A DNA stretch of 35,687 bases from a virus, in IMG/VR virus record IMGVR_UViG_3300028388_002326, positions 1 to 35,687 of that record, one strand, 5' to 3'. Shown here piece by piece: positions 24,291-31,423 of the stretch. The notes beneath the pieces were generated by a model that saw only the letters and a program-made list of their open reading frames with translations, ran no database searches and had not been told where the DNA came from. The position numbers and the translations under genes were made by a program. The number at the start of each line of letters is the position of its first letter. The first letter of the stretch is position 1.

Positions 24291-24568
24291 TACTTGTCCT
24301 CTTTGTCTTTAGCCAGCACGTTAACCTTCTTACTCTTGTTGGGTGACTTCTTCAAGTACTTGCCATCACCTTTACGTGGGGTTGGTGAGCAACTTGATGC
24401 GGCTTCTTTAGGCATGTTCTGCAGCGCGGCCTTAGCAGCGGCGAGCTTGACAGAAGAAGCTTTTTCCCGCTTGGGCTCAGGCTTATCAACGCCGAGGTAT
24501 TCATGCATATCAACAGTCTTCTTTGTTACACGATCAATACGCTTTGCTTCATCTGCCGAGAGCGTCAA
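24290..24568 (-). CDS. Lys-rich small protein, overlapping or frameshifted from upstream gene
   Basis: This 92-residue frame uses TTG 24568 as its start. The sequence from 'LSADEAKRIDRVTKKTVDMHEYLG' onwards has real-protein character: a helix, then a Lys/Ala-rich tail with 'SPTPRKGDGKYLKKSPNKSKK'. The frame reads further upstream, but that part is a shadow of the next gene. The preceding gene ends 20 bases inside this one with 'SEAFDALGR'; a frameshift there would give 'SEAFDA..SADEAKRI', which looks like a natural continuous protein. Two readings are possible: a separate gene started by TTG, or the C-terminus of the upstream gene after a +1 shift. Confidence 0.5.
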   Translation of the reverse strand: MTLSADEAKRIDRVTKKTVDMHEYLGVDKPEPKREKASSVKLAAAKAALQNMPKEAASSCSPTPRKGDGKYLKKSPNKSKKVNVLAKDKEDK

Positions 24569-25499
24569 ATGCTTCTGAAGCCTTCTCAAGGTCCTGCAGC
24601 CAGTAGGATGAACCGTTCTGCATCGTAACCAGTTCATTCTTAACCTTGTCTGCGGCCGACTTGGTGAATTTGAAGAACACATCTTCAGGGTAGTCAAACT
24701 CATTGCCGTAATGCTTGTTAAGATCCATACAGCGATCGTATACGTCTACAGCCTGAGCAACCTTAGTCAGTGTGTCTGCAGTGAGAACCTCTTCACCTTC
24801 TTCATTGAGACGACTGATAAGCTCTTTCATAGGAGCGGCAGCTTTTTTCTCAGACGTGGTCTTTGCACAAGCTACACGCCGCTTGATCTCTTTGACAGCG
24901 GCTTCCTTGGTCGTCAGCCCGTAACCGGCCATACATTGAATAGTATTTGGTACAGAAGAGATTGGGTAGCCTTCACGAATGTAAGCACCCATAATTTTCT
25001 GCGCTGCTTCCTTACGCATGGAGTACGTAAAGTTGCTACGATGTTCAACGATCTCTTCTGCAGACTTCTCTACAGCTTTACGATTATTAATCGGGAAGTA
25101 GTGAAGAGGCTTGCCATCATGTTTAACGGTCAGGGCGTAGTCTTCTTCCGTAGCTGCCACCTTCTCCGTCTTAGGGCGAAGATCTTCAGCTAGCTTATCC
25201 ATGTCAGGCTCAATATCCCAGAAGCGAGCCATGTCATTGAACTTCCGTTCAATGCGGGACGAGGCTCGTTTCGTGAATTTGTCTTTCTGTCTGACGAAAT
25301 AAGCGTATGATAGATAACAAGCTTCCTTTGTATGCACAGGGAACTGTTTACTGACTTGGTCAGCAAACGCCGTGTGCGGCAGCTTATCGACTTCTTCTGG
25401 TGTTGGCAAGCTTCCCTGCTTGACAAACTCAGGAAGATCAATTACCTTAGTAACTTGGTGGAAGTGTGTTAGCCCCATATCTGATACAGGATCGATCAT
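24549..25499 (-). CDS. Hypothetical virion-associated protein (fPvHT-motif)
   Basis: This is a 316-residue helix-rich protein. ATG 25499 has AAGGAG (complement of 25508-25513) eight bases upstream. Residues ~25-75 contain 'LPHTAFADQVSKQFPVHT', close to a motif ('dFA....r.fPi.t') that I recall from proteins associated with portal or head genes in large phages. The body is rich in Ala, Lys and Glu (KEAAVKEIKRRVACAKTTSEKK) with no enzymatic motif. Its start codon overlaps that of the divergent gene on the opposite strand. It ends inside the next minus-strand gene, where a frameshift is possible. A structural or internal-head role is a guess. Confidence 0.55.
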   Translation of the reverse strand: MIDPVSDMGLTHFHQVTKVIDLPEFVKQGSLPTPEEVDKLPHTAFADQVSKQFPVHTKEACYLSYAYFVRQKDKFTKRASSRIERKFNDMARFWDIEPDMDKLAEDLRPKTEKVAATEEDYALTVKHDGKPLHYFPINNRKAVEKSAEEIVEHRSNFTYSMRKEAAQKIMGAYIREGYPISSVPNTIQCMAGYGLTTKEAAVKEIKRRVACAKTTSEKKAAAPMKELISRLNEEGEEVLTADTLTKVAQAVDVYDRCMDLNKHYGNEFDYPEDVFFKFTKSAADKVKNELVTMQNGSSYWLQDLEKASEAFDALGR

Positions 25500-28041
25500 G
25501 GCAAAAGCTCCTTGTCTAGACGAGTTTATAACTACGGAATCAATTCTACAGCTGCTTAATTCTAGTGTCAAGACTATCCCTGCGGTAGTGGCCTGTCCTT
25601 GGGCCCCGGAAGATAAACTTTACTTGCTTCCTGATGGTGCCGGCTTGTACGCTTGCTCCGATGACTTTGCCGGTGACACCATAGAAGTCACAAAGAAAGT
25701 CTTCAACCTAAAGTCTACAGATCAGGCACTAAATAAGCTAGAAGAACATGGTTGTATTACCAGTGTTCGTGATATACCTGAAGAAGCCGTACTGAGCTAT
25801 GAGCTTGATTCAGCTAAACGAGCCTCCGTAAATGAGTTTATACAAAAACAGCGTGAAGCGCTAGGAAAGATGGATCTGAACCTAGATATTCTTTCTAGAA
25901 TCGGCTTGATGCCAGATAACATAGATCGGTGGCACACTGGATTAGGACAACACATCTTCTTTGCCAGAAAGCCCGCCCTAGAAGGTGTCCTCGGCACAAA
26001 GCTCGGCCTAAGAAACTCCAACGTTATGGTCTTGCCGTACTATGACATGCCGGGACGTGTATCCCGGCTTCGTTGTTTCTTCACTGTTGGCGGTACTGAC
26101 TGCGGATATGTAGACAGAGACATAGGATCCAGCGGTGGTCTGTTTATGACGGATACGGTTAGCCGTGGTGATCCACTGGCTATCGCTGTAGACGATCCTA
26201 TATTTGCTATGCAGCTGCAACGTAAGCATGCGAATATATCTAACAAACCGCTGCCGTTGGTGGTATATAATAGTGACACAGTTCACTGGAACGTCTGGGC
26301 TAACCGCATGGTCTTTTGGGGTAAAGACTATTCAGTTGAGCTGTTTAAGCAGGCTAAGCGGTTACCCAATTCAAGCGTATCAATACCGACCGGAACACTA
26401 ACACCGACAGCTATGATGAAGTTTGGCTCAGAGAGCTGGATGACGTCGGTAGTGCAGCAGGCCAAACCATGGGTAGTAGCACTAAAAGACTACATAACAA
26501 ACCTTGATGCTGAAAAAGCCGAGGCTGTAGTGCGGTCGTTGGAGCTGACTACAGAGGAACAGGGCCATCTACTGTATGAGTGTAACTCCGATGAGAAGGC
26601 GTTCATCAAGAACCTGTTTGATTCAGGCTACGTAGCAAAGACAGGATTCTTAGGAGACCGCAAACTGGTTGAAAGAAATGACGAGTGGTACTACGTAACT
26701 GCTAAGGGACGCATCTCTCGTATTGCAAACGCAACATTTGCCATAGAAAAAGTATTGGACTGTGGTGACGACGAACTTTATTACGGCTGTGAGCTGTGCC
26801 ATGAACAGAAAATGTACAAGTTTACGGCTCCGGCCGACGAGTTTACGCGCAACCCTACACGTTGGCTCCATAGGTATATGCTTGAAGAGGGTATAGGACT
26901 GCTACACGTACAGAAAGCATGGCAAAATAAGTTGATGGACGTAGCGCATACAATGTCGTCTTACAAGATTGAGCGGCAGAGTATGTCTACTCATGTTGGC
27001 TGGTCACCTGACTTCGTCAACTTTTCATTCCCGAATGTTACGTTATCTGACGGTAGAGTGGAGGTTGACTCGAAACCACTGCCGGGTAAGAACCTTCCGT
27101 GTACTGGAATAGACAAAAACCCACTTAGGAAGGCTGCCATAACCAATCTGCTGGAAGATACGCAGGTAAATAGGTACTTTTGGGCCACATTTATCACAGT
27201 TGTGGGCAATTTAACGTCAAAATACGTGGGAAGGCCTGAAAATAAGACCGTTTTTATGGGCAATCCGTACTTTTTTGAAATGTTTGCTGACATGCTAGGT
27301 CTTTGTACCGTACAACTGGTGTCAGGTAACCAAAAATACAACAAATCTGAGCTAAAATCTCTTAGAAATGACGATATTCCGTCGATTGTCTTCGCAGATG
27401 ACGTTGATGCAGCCTATTACAACTGGCAGGCGACTGGTGTTGTCACTACTGCTATACCATTTGTGAGTAATTTGACCGCTGAGATGCTATCCAGTCCAGA
27501 AATACAGTATATGATCACGAAAAGTGTTGATGGCAAGCTAAACCACATAGCCGCTGCGAAGAATTTGTTTGCTATGTACGTTAAAGACTTGCAGAGGAAC
27601 CGTGAATACTACATGGAAGAGTATGATACTACACTGGCCATGTCCTCTAACTTGCTTGCTGAGTGGGTAGAGGAGCGTCTACCAAACGCAGACACCACTA
27701 TTATCACTGAAGCACCGCTTCTTATACGTCATGGATCTCCAACAGGTAAGAGTAAGCCAGCAACAAAGCTGTATCATGTACTGTTTGCTGCAATAAAGGC
27801 CAAAAAACTAGGCGTTGGTAAGGTTGGAGTTAAGGGTAAGAAGAAGACGCCTGTCATGATAGGCGACTCATACGTGCATATACATAAGTATGGGATCACC
27901 TCGTTTCCTACTGGGTTTAACCTTGAGTCACTTGTACACAATGCAAAAGGATTGATGGAAAACTCTGACGAAGATTTCCTGCTTGATAAGAAAATCTGGG
28001 ACAAAGAACTGTCGGTCTGGAATGCCCACCAAATAGCTTAA
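25498..28041 (+). CDS. Primase/helicase-like protein, apparently degraded NTPase
   Basis: This is an 847-residue protein. Start ATG 25498 has AGGA at 25488-25491. Residues 30-80 look like a primase zinc-ribbon region that lost most Cys ('VVACPW...GAGLYACSDDFAGDTIEVTKKVFNLKSTDQALNKL'). Residues ~175-240 resemble a TOPRIM entry ('NVMVLPYYDMPGRVSRLRCF', then 'DPLAIAVDDPIFAMQL'). Residues ~560-660 follow the order of a helicase core: 'RYFWATFITVV', then 'NKTVFMGNPYFFEMFADMLG' where a Walker A loop is expected, then 'IPSIVFADDVDAA' like Walker B. The Walker A GK[S/T] is absent. It may be a degenerate primase-helicase with a structural or regulatory role, or an unrelated protein; this is fold-order inference only. 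It is the sole plus-strand gene between two minus blocks. Confidence 0.5.
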   Translation: MAKAPCLDEFITTESILQLLNSSVKTIPAVVACPWAPEDKLYLLPDGAGLYACSDDFAGDTIEVTKKVFNLKSTDQALNKLEEHGCITSVRDIPEEAVLSYELDSAKRASVNEFIQKQREALGKMDLNLDILSRIGLMPDNIDRWHTGLGQHIFFARKPALEGVLGTKLGLRNSNVMVLPYYDMPGRVSRLRCFFTVGGTDCGYVDRDIGSSGGLFMTDTVSRGDPLAIAVDDPIFAMQLQRKHANISNKPLPLVVYNSDTVHWNVWANRMVFWGKDYSVELFKQAKRLPNSSVSIPTGTLTPTAMMKFGSESWMTSVVQQAKPWVVALKDYITNLDAEKAEAVVRSLELTTEEQGHLLYECNSDEKAFIKNLFDSGYVAKTGFLGDRKLVERNDEWYYVTAKGRISRIANATFAIEKVLDCGDDELYYGCELCHEQKMYKFTAPADEFTRNPTRWLHRYMLEEGIGLLHVQKAWQNKLMDVAHTMSSYKIERQSMSTHVGWSPDFVNFSFPNVTLSDGRVEVDSKPLPGKNLPCTGIDKNPLRKAAITNLLEDTQVNRYFWATFITVVGNLTSKYVGRPENKTVFMGNPYFFEMFADMLGLCTVQLVSGNQKYNKSELKSLRNDDIPSIVFADDVDAAYYNWQATGVVTTAIPFVSNLTAEMLSSPEIQYMITKSVDGKLNHIAAAKNLFAMYVKDLQRNREYYMEEYDTTLAMSSNLLAEWVEERLPNADTTIITEAPLLIRHGSPTGKSKPATKLYHVLFAAIKAKKLGVGKVGVKGKKKTPVMIGDSYVHIHKYGITSFPTGFNLESLVHNAKGLMENSDEDFLLDKKIWDKELSVWNAHQIA

Positions 28042-28166: not shown

Positions 28167-29768
28167 CTATTGGATGATATCAGTTGGTGCGTCTACATCT
28201 GGTTTGACACCATATATAGCTTCCCATTCCTCAACGCTCATGCCCGCGTCCTTGAACTCATTTAGTTCGTTCTCAGTCAGTGATCTAGTAGTCACAGACT
28301 CTATAAGGTCAGGCCATTTTCCGTTGAGGTGGAAGGATGCTATAGCAGCGAAGTTAAGTGCATGAGCAAAGTCATCGCATTGATTTGCAGACTTACGAAC
28401 AAGGTACGTGTCGGCACCTCGCTTGGAGTCAATTTTCTCTTCGATGAGCGCTAGGATGTCGATAAGAAGATCACTACATGACTTCCATTGTGGGAAGTGT
28501 ATGTAGCCGTTTTTAATACATTCAATCAATAGAAGGAGGGATTTGGTTTTATCAATTGAGTAGTACGGCCGTCTCACAGTCTCAGTGGTTTCATGAAAGG
28601 TAACAATCTCTTTTGTCCATGCTGCCACATAAGAAAATGGTAAGACGGCCTGCATGTTGAATCCGGCGTGTGACATGAACGTGTCTCGCATACCGGCAGT
28701 ACCACCAGCATCATGGGCAAGTATATGGCAGCTGAACGCTTTGAACAGTGCCATAGCTCTTGCAACTTCCTGCCCCGGTTCAGGGAGGTGACCCAACGTT
28801 TCACCGTACAGTAGATCCACCCTGCCGTCAGGCCGCATACCGGTAATGGCCAGCTTGGTAAAACTTAGAGTGTCCTCGCCTCGACCACCCCAGTCTATGC
28901 CTAGCGCACGGAACATGTAACCGTCGATCAATTGACGAGACGTGTTAATGTCCATGCTTATAGGAAGGGTAGCAGCACGCCTAAGGTCAGTCTCTGTGAT
29001 TAGCTTTGCACCGATGTCACAGCTCTCACCAAGCACTTCGTTGTAGAAGGTGCGTTTTGGTATAGCACCTTGTTTGGCAGCCACAATCTTACGCCAGTTT
29101 CTCTTGTCCTCATAATGGAACGGAAGGATAAACTGTGGAACGTGGTAGCCGACGTATTCACCCCGCTTCTCAGGTTTGTTGTGATACCAGTAGCCTTTTG
29201 TACCGTCAATTGGTGACATACACTTTGCACAGATTAAGGTGTCATCACCGATCATCTTGAGCCCATCTCCATCGATACACGGATCATTGGTGTATCCGCA
29301 ATCGCATGGAATGTGCCACTCCGCCATCGACGACTTACACCATTCGACTTCTATCGTATTGTCGAGAGTCTTCGGTGTGCCAGATAGATCGGTGATGCGC
29401 CAGTTAGATCTACCCATCGTCTGTTCAATTTCAGGGATAAAGGCGGGGTCAATGTCCTGACAGTTGTGTACAGCTATGCCATTAACGAGGAGTGTGTGGT
29501 GATTCTCTGTCTCTACGTCCCACACTTCAGTCTCGCCCACGTACTCAATGGACACTATCTCTACTGGGACAAGCTTGTCGCCTTCTTTTGGCGGGCTTCC
29601 GAGTTTCTGCAGTTCTGCCTGTGCTTCGCCTTCTTGCATCCACTTTTTGAGCAGGCGATCGTCGGTGCATCTTTTCTTCGGTGCCCCCGAGGGATAAGGT
29701 CCCCGCAAAAGCTGCACGATACCATCTCTATAGGCTTGGGATTCTCGGCTTTCTTCTTGGCTCGCCAA
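28167..29768 (-). CDS. terL: Terminase large subunit, C-terminal half with C-intein
   Basis: This frame encodes the intein C-terminus and the rest of TerL. The C-intein reads 'VEIVSIEYVGETEVWDVETENH' in blocks, then HTLLVNGIAVHN with the terminal His-Asn, and the +1 extein residue is Cys (codon 29462-29460). The extein continues with coupling motif 'DLSGTP', a zinc-like CDCGY...CAKC, and the RNase H-like nuclease: 'GIDWGGRGED' (first Asp), 'LAHDAGGTAG' (second), 'QCDDFAHALNFA' (third). TTG 29768 and ATG 29639 are possible independent starts; neither has a good ribosome site. Its frame is offset from the N-terminal half, so the enzyme needs trans-splicing or a net -1 frameshift. Spliced TerL would be about 615 residues. 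Cellular role: DNA packaging at the portal. Confidence 0.85.
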   Translation of the reverse strand: MASQEESRESQAYRDGIVQLLRGPYPSGAPKKRCTDDRLLKKWMQEGEAQAELQKLGSPPKEGDKLVPVEIVSIEYVGETEVWDVETENHHTLLVNGIAVHNCQDIDPAFIPEIEQTMGRSNWRITDLSGTPKTLDNTIEVEWCKSSMAEWHIPCDCGYTNDPCIDGDGLKMIGDDTLICAKCMSPIDGTKGYWYHNKPEKRGEYVGYHVPQFILPFHYEDKRNWRKIVAAKQGAIPKRTFYNEVLGESCDIGAKLITETDLRRAATLPISMDINTSRQLIDGYMFRALGIDWGGRGEDTLSFTKLAITGMRPDGRVDLLYGETLGHLPEPGQEVARAMALFKAFSCHILAHDAGGTAGMRDTFMSHAGFNMQAVLPFSYVAAWTKEIVTFHETTETVRRPYYSIDKTKSLLLLIECIKNGYIHFPQWKSCSDLLIDILALIEEKIDSKRGADTYLVRKSANQCDDFAHALNFAAIASFHLNGKWPDLIESVTTRSLTENELNEFKDAGMSVEEWEAIYGVKPDVDAPTDIIQ

Positions 29769-30871
29769 GCTTTCTTGTACTCGTTCTGGGCGATTTGTTG
29801 ATGTAGCGTTGATTGAGTATCCAGTGCCGTTTGCGTTGACATTCGTAACTGCCGCACACGATCATCCTGTTCTGATCGTCCGAGCGGTTCTTCCGAAGTA
29901 TCTCCTCTTGGCAGAACATGCACGTCAGCACCTTGTCGGCGGACACCGTCGACTCTGGTATCACTGTCTTGTATGTCATACTCTCGTGAATGTGTGGCTT
30001 CACCATCTCGATGAACTTCAGTGCAGCATCTTTGTTCATGTTGATGTAGTACCCACCTTTTCTGTTCTGATACCGGCTGTCCTGTCGTAGCTCGGCCATT
30101 ATTCCGCGCTTCCTCAGGTGGTTCACTAGAAGCTGTACCCCCCGTTTGTTGAAGTTGTGAACCGACAGTTGTACAGTCGTTTGCAGTTTGCCTATCGAAC
30201 CGTCGTCCATGTAGAAGTACGCCCAGCTCACCGGAGTCAACTGGTCTGTCCATGCCTTGGTTACAGTCTTTTTTACCCTCTTGGTCCTGCCGTCCACCTT
30301 GTAGCACAGACCCTGTAAGAAGTCGAATACCGGGGAGGTCACTGTCGTAAAAACACAGCTTTTGTTCCCCCAGCCTTTGTTCTCTACTATCTTCGCTGGG
30401 GTACGTACGTAGTCCTGTAATAGACCGGCCTTGTGGTGACAGTACTCTGCTTGAATCTCCCCGTGTGTCATGTAAATACGACCCACTTTTGATCCGTCCG
30501 GTTTCTGCATCCAGTTCATGGCTCCATCCCCTAAGAGCATCCCGAGGATAGCCTCCCGAAGAAACCCAGTCACGGGACGGAGCTTTGTTTCCTGTATATT
30601 GTTCGTAGGCATAGTCAAGTATCTCCTGCAGATGTGTCCAACCTTGGTCCGTGTACAACAACTCGTTTGCCGTACACGATAGTGTTCGACCGTCTGCAAG
30701 TGTAATCTTCCACGTTGGGCGAGTACCTTTACAGACGACGTCGGTTACTGTGTCTGTAACTATACTGCCTTCTTTGTCGAATGTCAAGATAGTGTCTTTA
30801 ACATTTAAATCGTGGCCAATATACTTGATCGTATTCTCATAAGTCGTTACTGTGGAAAGCTTTATAAGGCA
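29463..30871 (-). other. Intein in terminase Walker B (1,409 bp, three frames)
   Basis: The intein begins at C185 of the N-terminal frame (codon 30871-30869) immediately after 'RVHADE', the Walker B Asp-Glu, and ends with VHN just before Cys-Gln-Asp of the C-extein. N-terminal blocks are 'CLIKLSTVTTY' and 'KITLADGRTLSCTANELLYT'. The usual block B His (T-x-x-H) is Glu here (T-A-N-E). The intein length 1,409 is not a multiple of three, so the halves are one base out of frame. A LAGLIDADG gene sits in a third frame between the splicing halves. The general shape is close to split inteins of the gp41-1 type, a comparison made from memory of that sequence. Confidence 0.85.
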
Positions 30872-31423
30872 TTCGTCCGCGTGTACTCTATCCGCTGGTA
30901 TACCTCTCACTCTGTCTGCATCAAGGAAGGCAAAGGAGAAGTGCATCATCGATTGGTTGATAAACGTCTTCTGCAGCACGCTCTTTTCGCATTTAGTATC
31001 AACCATAGCTGGAGCAATCGGGGAGTACTCAATCAGTGGTCGTACGTAGTTACTACTGAATCTGCGGGTCATCTCATACTGTGGTGTGACAGTCAGCGTC
31101 TGAAAAAACGGAATCATAGCAGACAGCATGATGGTCTTCGCCGCAAAGCTAGATGACTTACCAACCTGACGAGCGGTCTTCAGTATACTTCTTGGAGTGA
31201 GTGAAAGGTTAAACAGCGGGTGGAACTGGGGAAACATTCCGTCTGTAAACGGCTTCTGGCGAACGTGGATCATAGAGCCCAGCACAGGTATTAGAGAGTC
31301 AGTCTCATTGACGATACACACCGAAGCGGCTATAATATCTTGTACATGCTTATTCTGCTCCTTGAGGGGTAGTTTGTCTATCTCGGTAAGAAACAATAAA
31401 GCATCGTTAACAGATTTAAACAT
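29561..31423 (-). CDS. terL: Terminase large subunit, N-terminal half with N-intein and long extension
   Basis: This is a 620-residue frame from ATG 31423, with GGAG (31431-31434, minus strand) seven bases upstream. Residues 1-184 are the TerL ATPase: Walker A 'TARQVGKSSS' (83-92), adenine-region 'TVTPQYE', and Walker B ending 'VHADE' (180-184). The N-intein follows from C185 to about residue 275. The last ~345 residues overlap the endonuclease gene in another frame. Most of this extension looks like a shadow, but its end holds a good zinc finger 'CSFC..C....C' (C-x2-C-x17-C-x4-C), like the one in the endonuclease. The frame has no stop for about 1 kb after the intein blocks, which is notable. 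Confidence 0.8.
   Translation of the reverse strand: MFKSVNDALLFLTEIDKLPLKEQNKHVQDIIAASVCIVNETDSLIPVLGSMIHVRQKPFTDGMFPQFHPLFNLSLTPRSILKTARQVGKSSSFAAKTIMLSAMIPFFQTLTVTPQYEMTRRFSSNYVRPLIEYSPIAPAMVDTKCEKSVLQKTFINQSMMHFSFAFLDADRVRGIPADRVHADECLIKLSTVTTYENTIKYIGHDLNVKDTILTFDKEGSIVTDTVTDVVCKGTRPTWKITLADGRTLSCTANELLYTDQGWTHLQEILDYAYEQYTGNKAPSRDWVSSGGYPRDALRGWSHELDAETGRIKSGSYLHDTRGDSSRVLSPQGRSITGLRTYPSEDSREQRLGEQKLCFYDSDLPGIRLLTGSVLQGGRQDQEGKKDCNQGMDRPVDSGELGVLLHGRRFDRQTANDCTTVGSQLQQTGGTASSEPPEEARNNGRATTGQPVSEQKRWVLHQHEQRCCTEVHRDGEATHSREYDIQDSDTRVDGVRRQGADVHVLPRGDTSEEPLGRSEQDDRVRQLRMSTQTALDTQSTLHQQIAQNEYKKAWRAKKKAENPKPIEMVSCSFCGDLIPRGHRRKDAPTIACSKSGCKKAKHRQNCRNSEARQKKATSLSQ
29728..30612 (-). CDS. LAGLIDADG homing endonuclease nested in the terL intein
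   Basis: This 294-residue protein starts at ATG 30612, with AGGAG (complement of 30623-30627) ten bases upstream, so it has its own translation start. Two LAGLIDADG-type motifs are visible: 'AILGMLLGDGAM' (21-32) and 'PVSWAYFYMDDGSI' (127-140), with the family's expected separation. Residues 231-258 form a zinc finger, C-x2-C-x18-C-x4-C, followed by a basic helix. Known family role: double-strand cleavage at the unoccupied target to copy the element. The frame is +1 relative to the terminase N-half, so it is overprinted and free-standing rather than fused. Its last ~20 residues look like a shadow; a one-base A insertion near 29794-29796 would extend it through the second zinc finger. Confidence 0.88.
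   Translation of the reverse strand: MPTNNIQETKLRPVTGFLREAILGMLLGDGAMNWMQKPDGSKVGRIYMTHGEIQAEYCHHKAGLLQDYVRTPAKIVENKGWGNKSCVFTTVTSPVFDFLQGLCYKVDGRTKRVKKTVTKAWTDQLTPVSWAYFYMDDGSIGKLQTTVQLSVHNFNKRGVQLLVNHLRKRGIMAELRQDSRYQNRKGGYYINMNKDAALKFIEMVKPHIHESMTYKTVIPESTVSADKVLTCMFCQEEILRKNRSDDQNRMIVCGSYECQRKRHWILNQRYINKSPRTSTRKLGEPRRKPRIPSL

What the first reader, a model, noticed from the sequence alone, without database searches (positions are those of the whole stretch)
29463..30871. Terminase intein whose two halves and homing endonuclease occupy three different reading frames
Seen: N-extein plus N-intein in frame A, a LAGLIDADG gene in frame B, C-intein plus C-extein in frame C. The intein is 1,409 bp, so its ends cannot be in one frame. 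The split/fractured intein genes I know of keep the halves apart with a separate endonuclease gene between them. Here the endonuclease is overprinted on the N-half frame, which continues open. Inference: TerL is restored by trans-splicing, by a net -1 frameshift, or is damaged. A new kind of fractured gene is possible.
Basis: partly seen in the sequence, partly recalled or inferred. Interest (0 to 1): 0.92.

Follow-up and report, generated by a model that had tools for sequence, protein, structure and literature searches.

The report
Terminase intein with overprinted homing endonuclease
A phage DNA-packaging gene carries a self-removing protein insert whose DNA also encodes, in a second reading frame, the enzyme that spreads the insert; the apparent break into three frames is one local frame displacement in this copy, not a new kind of broken-up gene.

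Summary
The frames are as described: TerL N-part and N-intein in frame A, a LAGLIDADG endonuclease (HEN) in frame B, C-intein and TerL C-part in frame C. One detail was missed: downstream of ~29,800, frame A encodes the HEN's second zinc finger. The closest relative (L014, 55% identical in the TerL C-part) has the same intein at the same site in one uninterrupted 1,129-aa TerL frame, with the whole HEN, both zinc fingers included, overprinted in +1. Aligned to it, both window frames (TerL A to C, HEN B to A) are displaced by the same -1 within ~29,788-29,815. One event (a 3n+1 deletion, or an assembly error of that effect) therefore explains everything. Frame A has 0 stops across the 270 HEN codons (8.9 expected; 0 of 20,000 shuffles). 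Genuinely split helicase inteins of the same HEN type (phages Ymer, Amona, ES) carry chance numbers of stops. This fits continuous cis translation, not an established fractured gene. The surprising part is the overprinting: eight independent phage inteins (five TerL, three helicase) keep the host frame open over an out-of-frame HEN, even where the HEN has died. Artefact versus very recent real break cannot be decided without reads.

The parts
30872..31423 (-). TerL N-extein (Walker A to Walker B 'HADE'), frame A
30610..30871 (-). N-terminal intein splicing domain, Cys1 at 30871, frame A
   Evidence: Hint, E=0.0021, below the Pfam cut-off; profile of relatives vs solved inteins
30623..30627 (-). 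Shine-Dalgarno AGGAG for the overprinted endonuclease, 10 nt before ATG 30612; conserved in L014
   Evidence: duplex energy -7.4 kcal/mol
29728..30612 (-). Overprinted LAGLIDADG_2 homing endonuclease, frame B (+1 relative to TerL); zinc finger 1 at 29839-29922
   Evidence: I-SceI-like
29788..29815 (-). Interval of the single -1 displacement affecting both frames (A to C for TerL, B to A for HEN)
29636..29716 (-). Second zinc finger of the endonuclease, now in frame A (C-x2-C...C-x4-C)
   Evidence: 56% identity to L014 HEN residues 334-405
29561..29563 (-). Stop codon ending open frame A
29463..29573 (-). C-terminal intein splicing domain (...VHN), frame C
   Evidence: (Intein_splicing, E=0.0024, below the Pfam cut-off)
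28167..29462 (-). TerL C-extein beginning CQDID, frame C

Best explanation
This is an ordinary cis-splicing intein (Cys1 ... His-Asn | Cys+1) inserted directly after the Walker B 'DE' of a phage large terminase, with an uncommon coding plan. The I-SceI-like LAGLIDADG homing endonuclease with zinc fingers is not part of the intein polypeptide. It is a separate gene overprinted in the +1 frame of the intein and started from its own Shine-Dalgarno and ATG. The TerL ribosome reads straight through the endonuclease DNA in the host frame, making a long disordered linker of about 350 residues between the two halves of the splicing domain, which then splices. A second ribosome makes the endonuclease, which drives homing into empty DE|[VI]QD sites. 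In the window's copy one event in the linker between the two zinc fingers (~29,788-29,815; a 3n+1 deletion or an equivalent assembly/sequence error) shifts both frames by -1, which creates the three-frame appearance. Shown: one-frame architecture in relatives, same displacement in both frames, host frame kept open beyond chance, conserved start signal. Inferred: splicing, homing and expression. Not decidable here: artefact versus very recent mutation.
For: L014 TerL is one 1,129-aa ORF with N- and C-intein in frame and a 407-aa HEN ORF in +1 carrying both zinc fingers. tblastn of these two ORFs on the window: TerL matches frame A (31393-29945) then frame C (29732-28266); HEN matches frame B then frame A (29788-29573), the same -1 step. 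Window intein 1,409 nt against 1,512 in L014, a deficit of 3n+1. Host-frame stops within the HEN: window 0 vs 8.9 expected, 0 of 20,000 shuffles; L014 0 vs 10.1; L007 0 vs 20.8; L008 0 vs 6.8; FoX3, L011, L013 also 0; split controls Ymer 13 vs 13.4, Amona 13 vs 12.5, ES 10 vs 11.5. In L026 and L091 the HEN is truncated or nonsense-mutated while TerL stays in frame. AF2 of the L014 host-frame intein: residues 1-90 and 470-504 at pLDDT ~90, the overprinted middle disordered; Foldseek hits are inteins. Other genes shared with L014 show no frameshift.
Against: No reads and no near-identical genome, so the displacement cannot be proven to be an error or recent. L014 is only ~55% identical and its zinc-finger linker is longer by roughly 120 nt, so the event is not a plain one-base slip. 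FoX3, L011 and L013 are individually only marginally significant for stop avoidance (P 0.002-0.025). The simulation allows the host frame to stay open by luck if the break is very young (60% at 0.02 mutations per site). The block B histidine is missing.
Confidence: 0.85

Rival explanations
1. Nascent split intein: the frame-breaking deletion is real and recent, and TerL is restored by protein trans-splicing of the frame-A N-half with a frame-C C-half started internally (GTG 29717 or TTG 29768, possibly coupled to the HEN stop at 29728).
For: Both intein halves and exteins are intact; GTG 29717 has a moderate SD (-5.2) close after the HEN stop. Split helicase inteins with HEN overlapping both halves exist in isolate genomes Ymer, Amona and ES. 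Split TerL inteins are known (GOS-TerL, cited in PMC7090010).
Against: C-half start signals are near background level (25% quantile -3.7, 5% quantile -7.4). Frame A has none of the stops that established split relatives have. The HEN would have lost its conserved second zinc finger in the same event.
Confidence: 0.2
2. Programmed -1 ribosomal frameshifting restores TerL (A to C) and the full HEN (B to A).
For: Both frames need the same -1 step and the frames overlap there.
Against: No X XXY YYZ heptamer in phase for either frame in the overlap. The two ribosome streams are in different phases, so one site would not serve both. Relatives need no frameshift.
Confidence: 0.04
3. The TerL gene is truly dead: a defective phage or decaying provirus.
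For: TerL is out of frame as it stands.
Against: Exteins, splicing residues and other shared genes are intact; no other frameshift was found against L014.
Confidence: 0.1
4. The insert is a group I intron or other RNA element carrying a HEN.
For: The HEN resembles intron-type I-SceI and lies out of the host frame, as in introns.
Against: No Rfam match up to E=0.5. The host frame has intein ends and an intein fold.
Confidence: 0.01

Closest known systems
[quoted passage not shown]
   Same: A homing endonuclease hidden in another frame of an insert that stays open in the host frame; mobile; overlapping ORFs in phages
   Different: HNH instead of LAGLIDADG; no splicing domain, so the authors suggest the insert stays in the protein; no recognisable RBS, whereas here a conserved SD precedes the HEN
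Canonical large inteins with in-frame LAGLIDADG domain (e.g. Pseudaeromonas phage KLEP7 RNA ligase, L036, L037)
   Same: Hint splicing domain interrupted by LAGLIDADG coding sequence between its N and C parts
   Different: There the HEN is translated in the intein frame; here it is in +1 with its own start
Fractured genes / split inteins with an interposed endonuclease gene (Dassa et al. 2009, from memory; text not held)
   Same: N-half, endonuclease, C-half order; possible trans-splicing
   Different: There the halves are separate genes; here the host frame is kept open across the HEN and relatives are single ORFs
Split helicase inteins of Pectobacterium phages Ymer and Amona and Escherichia phage ES
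   Same: HEN frame overlaps both intein halves; insertion at Walker B DE|C
   Different: Host frame has chance numbers of stops, so these are truly split; the HEN lies in +2
Xanthomonas phage FoX3 helicase intein (isolate)
   Same: In-frame intein with overprinted LAGLIDADG HEN
   Different: Host gene is a helicase, HEN in +2, no zinc fingers

Membership tests
Intein (Hint splicing domain) | Nucleophile at position 1, C-terminal His-Asn, Cys/Ser/Thr at +1 | tested here: met
   Cys1 at 30871...AVHN ending 29463, Cys+1 at 29462
Intein (Hint splicing domain) | Splicing fold formed by N and C parts | tested here: met
   AF2 on relative L014 plus Foldseek hits to DnaB/DnaX/RecA inteins; not run on the window itself because its halves are in two frames
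Intein (Hint splicing domain) | Block B histidine (TxxH) | tested here: not met
   Window TANE, L014 TANE, L008 TSDS; the intein call rests on fold, termini and exact extein reconstitution, and splicing rate cannot be judged here
Intein (Hint splicing domain) | N- and C-parts in one reading frame with the exteins (cis intein) | tested here: not met
   Window: C-part is -1 to N-part. Met in relatives L014, L008, L007, L026 and L091
LAGLIDADG homing endonuclease | Two LAGLIDADG helices with acidic residues | tested here: met
   LLGDG and YMDDG in frame B, PF03161 E=1.6e-28, I-SceI profile E=2e-22
Overprinted-HEN intein (group defined here) | HEN in another frame while the host frame stays open beyond chance | tested here: met
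   0 stops vs 8.9 expected, 0 of 20,000 shuffles
Fractured gene / split intein | Host frame broken between halves, as seen in established cases | tested here: inconclusive
   Broken once by a displacement, but no stop accumulation (0, against 10-13 in Ymer, Amona, ES)
Fractured gene / split intein | Separate translation start for the C-half | tested here: inconclusive
   Only weak candidates GTG 29717 (-5.2) and TTG 29768 (-2.5)
Fractured gene / split intein | Trans-splicing activity | not testable with these tools
   Needs an assay
ShiLan-type hidden endonuclease | No splicing domain | tested here: not met
   Splicing domain present

The most novel reading that the evidence does not exclude
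The break is real and very recent: the window catches a cis-intein with an overprinted endonuclease at the moment it becomes a split, trans-splicing intein. The overprinted, self-starting endonuclease is what makes the split survivable, a route by which fractured genes arise (Ymer, Amona and ES helicases being later stages).
Probability: 0.18. Interest if true: 0.82.

Novelty: new variant of a known kind. Interest (0 to 1): 0.6.

Why it matters
Inteins are usually described with the endonuclease fused in frame to the splicing domain, or lost. A recurrent class in which the endonuclease is a separately started, overprinted gene separates splicing from homing, lets the endonuclease die without harming the host protein (seen in L026 and L091), and offers a testable path to fractured genes. 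It also means endonucleases of this kind are missed by annotation: in FoX3 the HEN has no annotated gene of its own, and the match falls under a helicase or misnamed product. A preprint on non-canonical intein architecture in actinobacteriophages (Gosselin et al. 2025, cited in PMC11855218) could not be read here and may already describe part of this.

Tried and rejected
Multiple independent indels in a decaying intein: rejected, because one displacement fits both frames. Programmed frameshift: no slippery site. Intron: no Rfam match. Conserved protein in the host-frame linker: rejected, host-frame identity window/L014 is 35.6% against 35.2% in the unused third frame, so only openness is kept. 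Near-identical genomes: an exact-pattern scan and TerL peptide patterns found none. Genome-contig scans gave one stand-alone Ignavibacteria HEN without intein. Plasmid searches gave a canonical in-frame intein (L037) and unrelated HENs. DNA-level phage search: no match. KLEP7 was checked as the canonical in-frame control.

Full report
Observation. On the minus strand the window has a terminase large subunit (TerL) interrupted directly after its Walker B motif (HADE|C). The N-extein (31423-30872) and N-intein (from 30871) are in frame A, a LAGLIDADG endonuclease in frame B, and the C-intein (ending ...AVHN at 29463) and C-extein (29462-28167) in frame C. PHROG_675 covers TerL positions 48-161 in A and 163-554 in C, so the insert boundaries are exact. 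Pfam LAGLIDADG_2 hits frame B at 1.6e-28; the Hint and Intein_splicing hits on the window's own halves are weak (E 0.002, below cut-off). The profile of host-frame inteins from relatives matches solved inteins strongly at both ends. One thing was missed: downstream of about 29,800, frame A carries a second zinc finger (VSCSFC...CSKSGC), similar to the one at the end of frame B.

Relatives. Three viral-contig scans gave TerL relatives with the same insertion. L014 (IMGVR_UViG_3300035698_007215) is closest. Its TerL is one ORF of 1,129 aa through both intein halves, and its HEN is a 407-aa ORF in +1 that contains zinc finger 1, a long basic linker and zinc finger 2. L008/L009 show the same plan at the same site, and L007 shows it in another TerL. 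L026 keeps the one-frame TerL with only a truncated HEN remnant. L091 keeps it with a stop inside the HEN. Helicase inteins of Xanthomonas phage FoX3 (L010), L011 and L013 also have an overprinted HEN, in +2. Of 80 TerL relatives found with the N-extein, 76 have an empty site, nearly always DE|[VI]QD; four rows carry an intein (L014 again, L008/L009 again, and L091).

One event explains the frames. Aligning the two L014 ORFs to the window gives TerL residues 22-504 in A then 611-1101 in C, and HEN residues 11-318 in B then 334-405 in A. A to C and B to A are the same -1 step, and both fall between the end of zinc finger 1 and 29,788. The window intein is 1,409 nt against 1,512 nt in L014 (3n+1 shorter) and lacks part of the linker between the fingers. 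A single 3n+1 deletion, or an assembly or sequence error with that effect, is enough. No other gene shared with L014 shows a frameshift.

Is the N-half frame still read through? Synonymous-codon shuffling of the HEN (protein and codon usage kept) predicts 8.9 stops in frame A over the 270 HEN codons; there are none (0 of 20,000 shuffles open). The one-frame relatives behave the same way: L014 0 vs 10.1, L008 0 vs 6.8, L007 0 vs 20.8, FoX3 0 vs 2.6, L011 0 vs 2.8, L013 0 vs 4.6. As a control, the helicase inteins of Pectobacterium phages Ymer and Amona and Escherichia phage ES are truly split, with HEN overlapping both halves. There the host frame has 13, 13 and 10 stops against 13.4, 12.5 and 11.5 expected. 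The window therefore has the signature of a frame translated across the HEN. Simulation shows an unselected frame would stay open with probability 0.28 at 0.05 and 0.09 at 0.1 neutral mutations per site, so if the break is real it is young. The host-frame linker shows no amino-acid conservation beyond being open (35.6% against 35.2% in the third frame).

How it works. The host-frame intein of L014 folds, by AlphaFold2, as a Hint domain from residues 1-90 and 470-504, with the overprinted middle disordered; structure matches are DnaB, DnaX, RecA and gp41-1 inteins. The block B histidine is absent in the window, L014 and L008, so splicing competence is inferred, not shown. The HEN has both acidic LAGLIDADG motifs and is close to I-SceI among solved structures. 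It has its own Shine-Dalgarno (AGGAG, -7.4 kcal/mol, as strong as TerL's own -6.4), conserved in L014. The likely working is: one ribosome stream makes the TerL-intein precursor, which splices in cis; another makes the HEN, which homes into empty TerL genes.

Rivals. Trans-splicing from a nascent split cannot be excluded (GTG 29717 has a moderate SD) but is not needed. Programmed -1 frameshifting lacks a slippery site. A group I intron is not detected.

Known and new. Split inteins with an endonuclease gene between the halves are known (Dassa et al. 2009, cited in PMC7090010; text not held), and split TerL inteins are known (GOS-TerL, cited in PMC7090010). An endonuclease hidden out of frame in a mobile insert is known from the ShiLan domain, which has no splicing domain and no recognisable RBS (PMC11855218). 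I found no readable paper on inteins whose endonuclease is overprinted in another frame; one preprint on non-canonical actinobacteriophage inteins could not be read. I rate the architecture as a new variant of a known kind, and the fractured-gene claim as not supported for this window.

Noticed in passing
L030 (Pectobacterium phage Ymer), L033 (Amona), L031/L032 (Escherichia phages ES, AN_ECEAS), helicase region: Helicase split by a split intein with the LAGLIDADG HEN ORF overlapping both halves; annotated as hypothetical protein, homing endonuclease and DNA helicase, intein not annotated. Looks like a real fractured gene in isolate genomes.
   Followed up: partly
L007 245-3877 and 3899-6799: One TerL with two inteins (the first without HEN, the second with overprinted HEN), followed by a gene with what looks like a third, in-frame HEN-type intein.
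   Followed up: no
L026 3881-4222 and L091 5491-5495: Dead HENs (truncated; in-frame stop at the second LAGLIDADG motif) while the overlapping TerL frame stays intact: HEN decays, host frame is kept.
   Followed up: partly
L091 4306-7266: TerL intein inserted a few residues upstream of the usual Walker B DE| site, also with overprinted HEN.
   Followed up: no
TerL versus helicase inteins (L007, L008, L014, L026, L091 against L010, L011, L013, L030, L031): HEN lies in +1 in all TerL cases and +2 in all helicase cases, suggesting at least two origins of the overprint.
   Followed up: no
window 25309-25598: Head-to-head overlapping ORFs on opposite strands (24549-25571 minus; 25372-28041 plus), both with homologues in L014's contig; start sites uncertain.
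   Followed up: no
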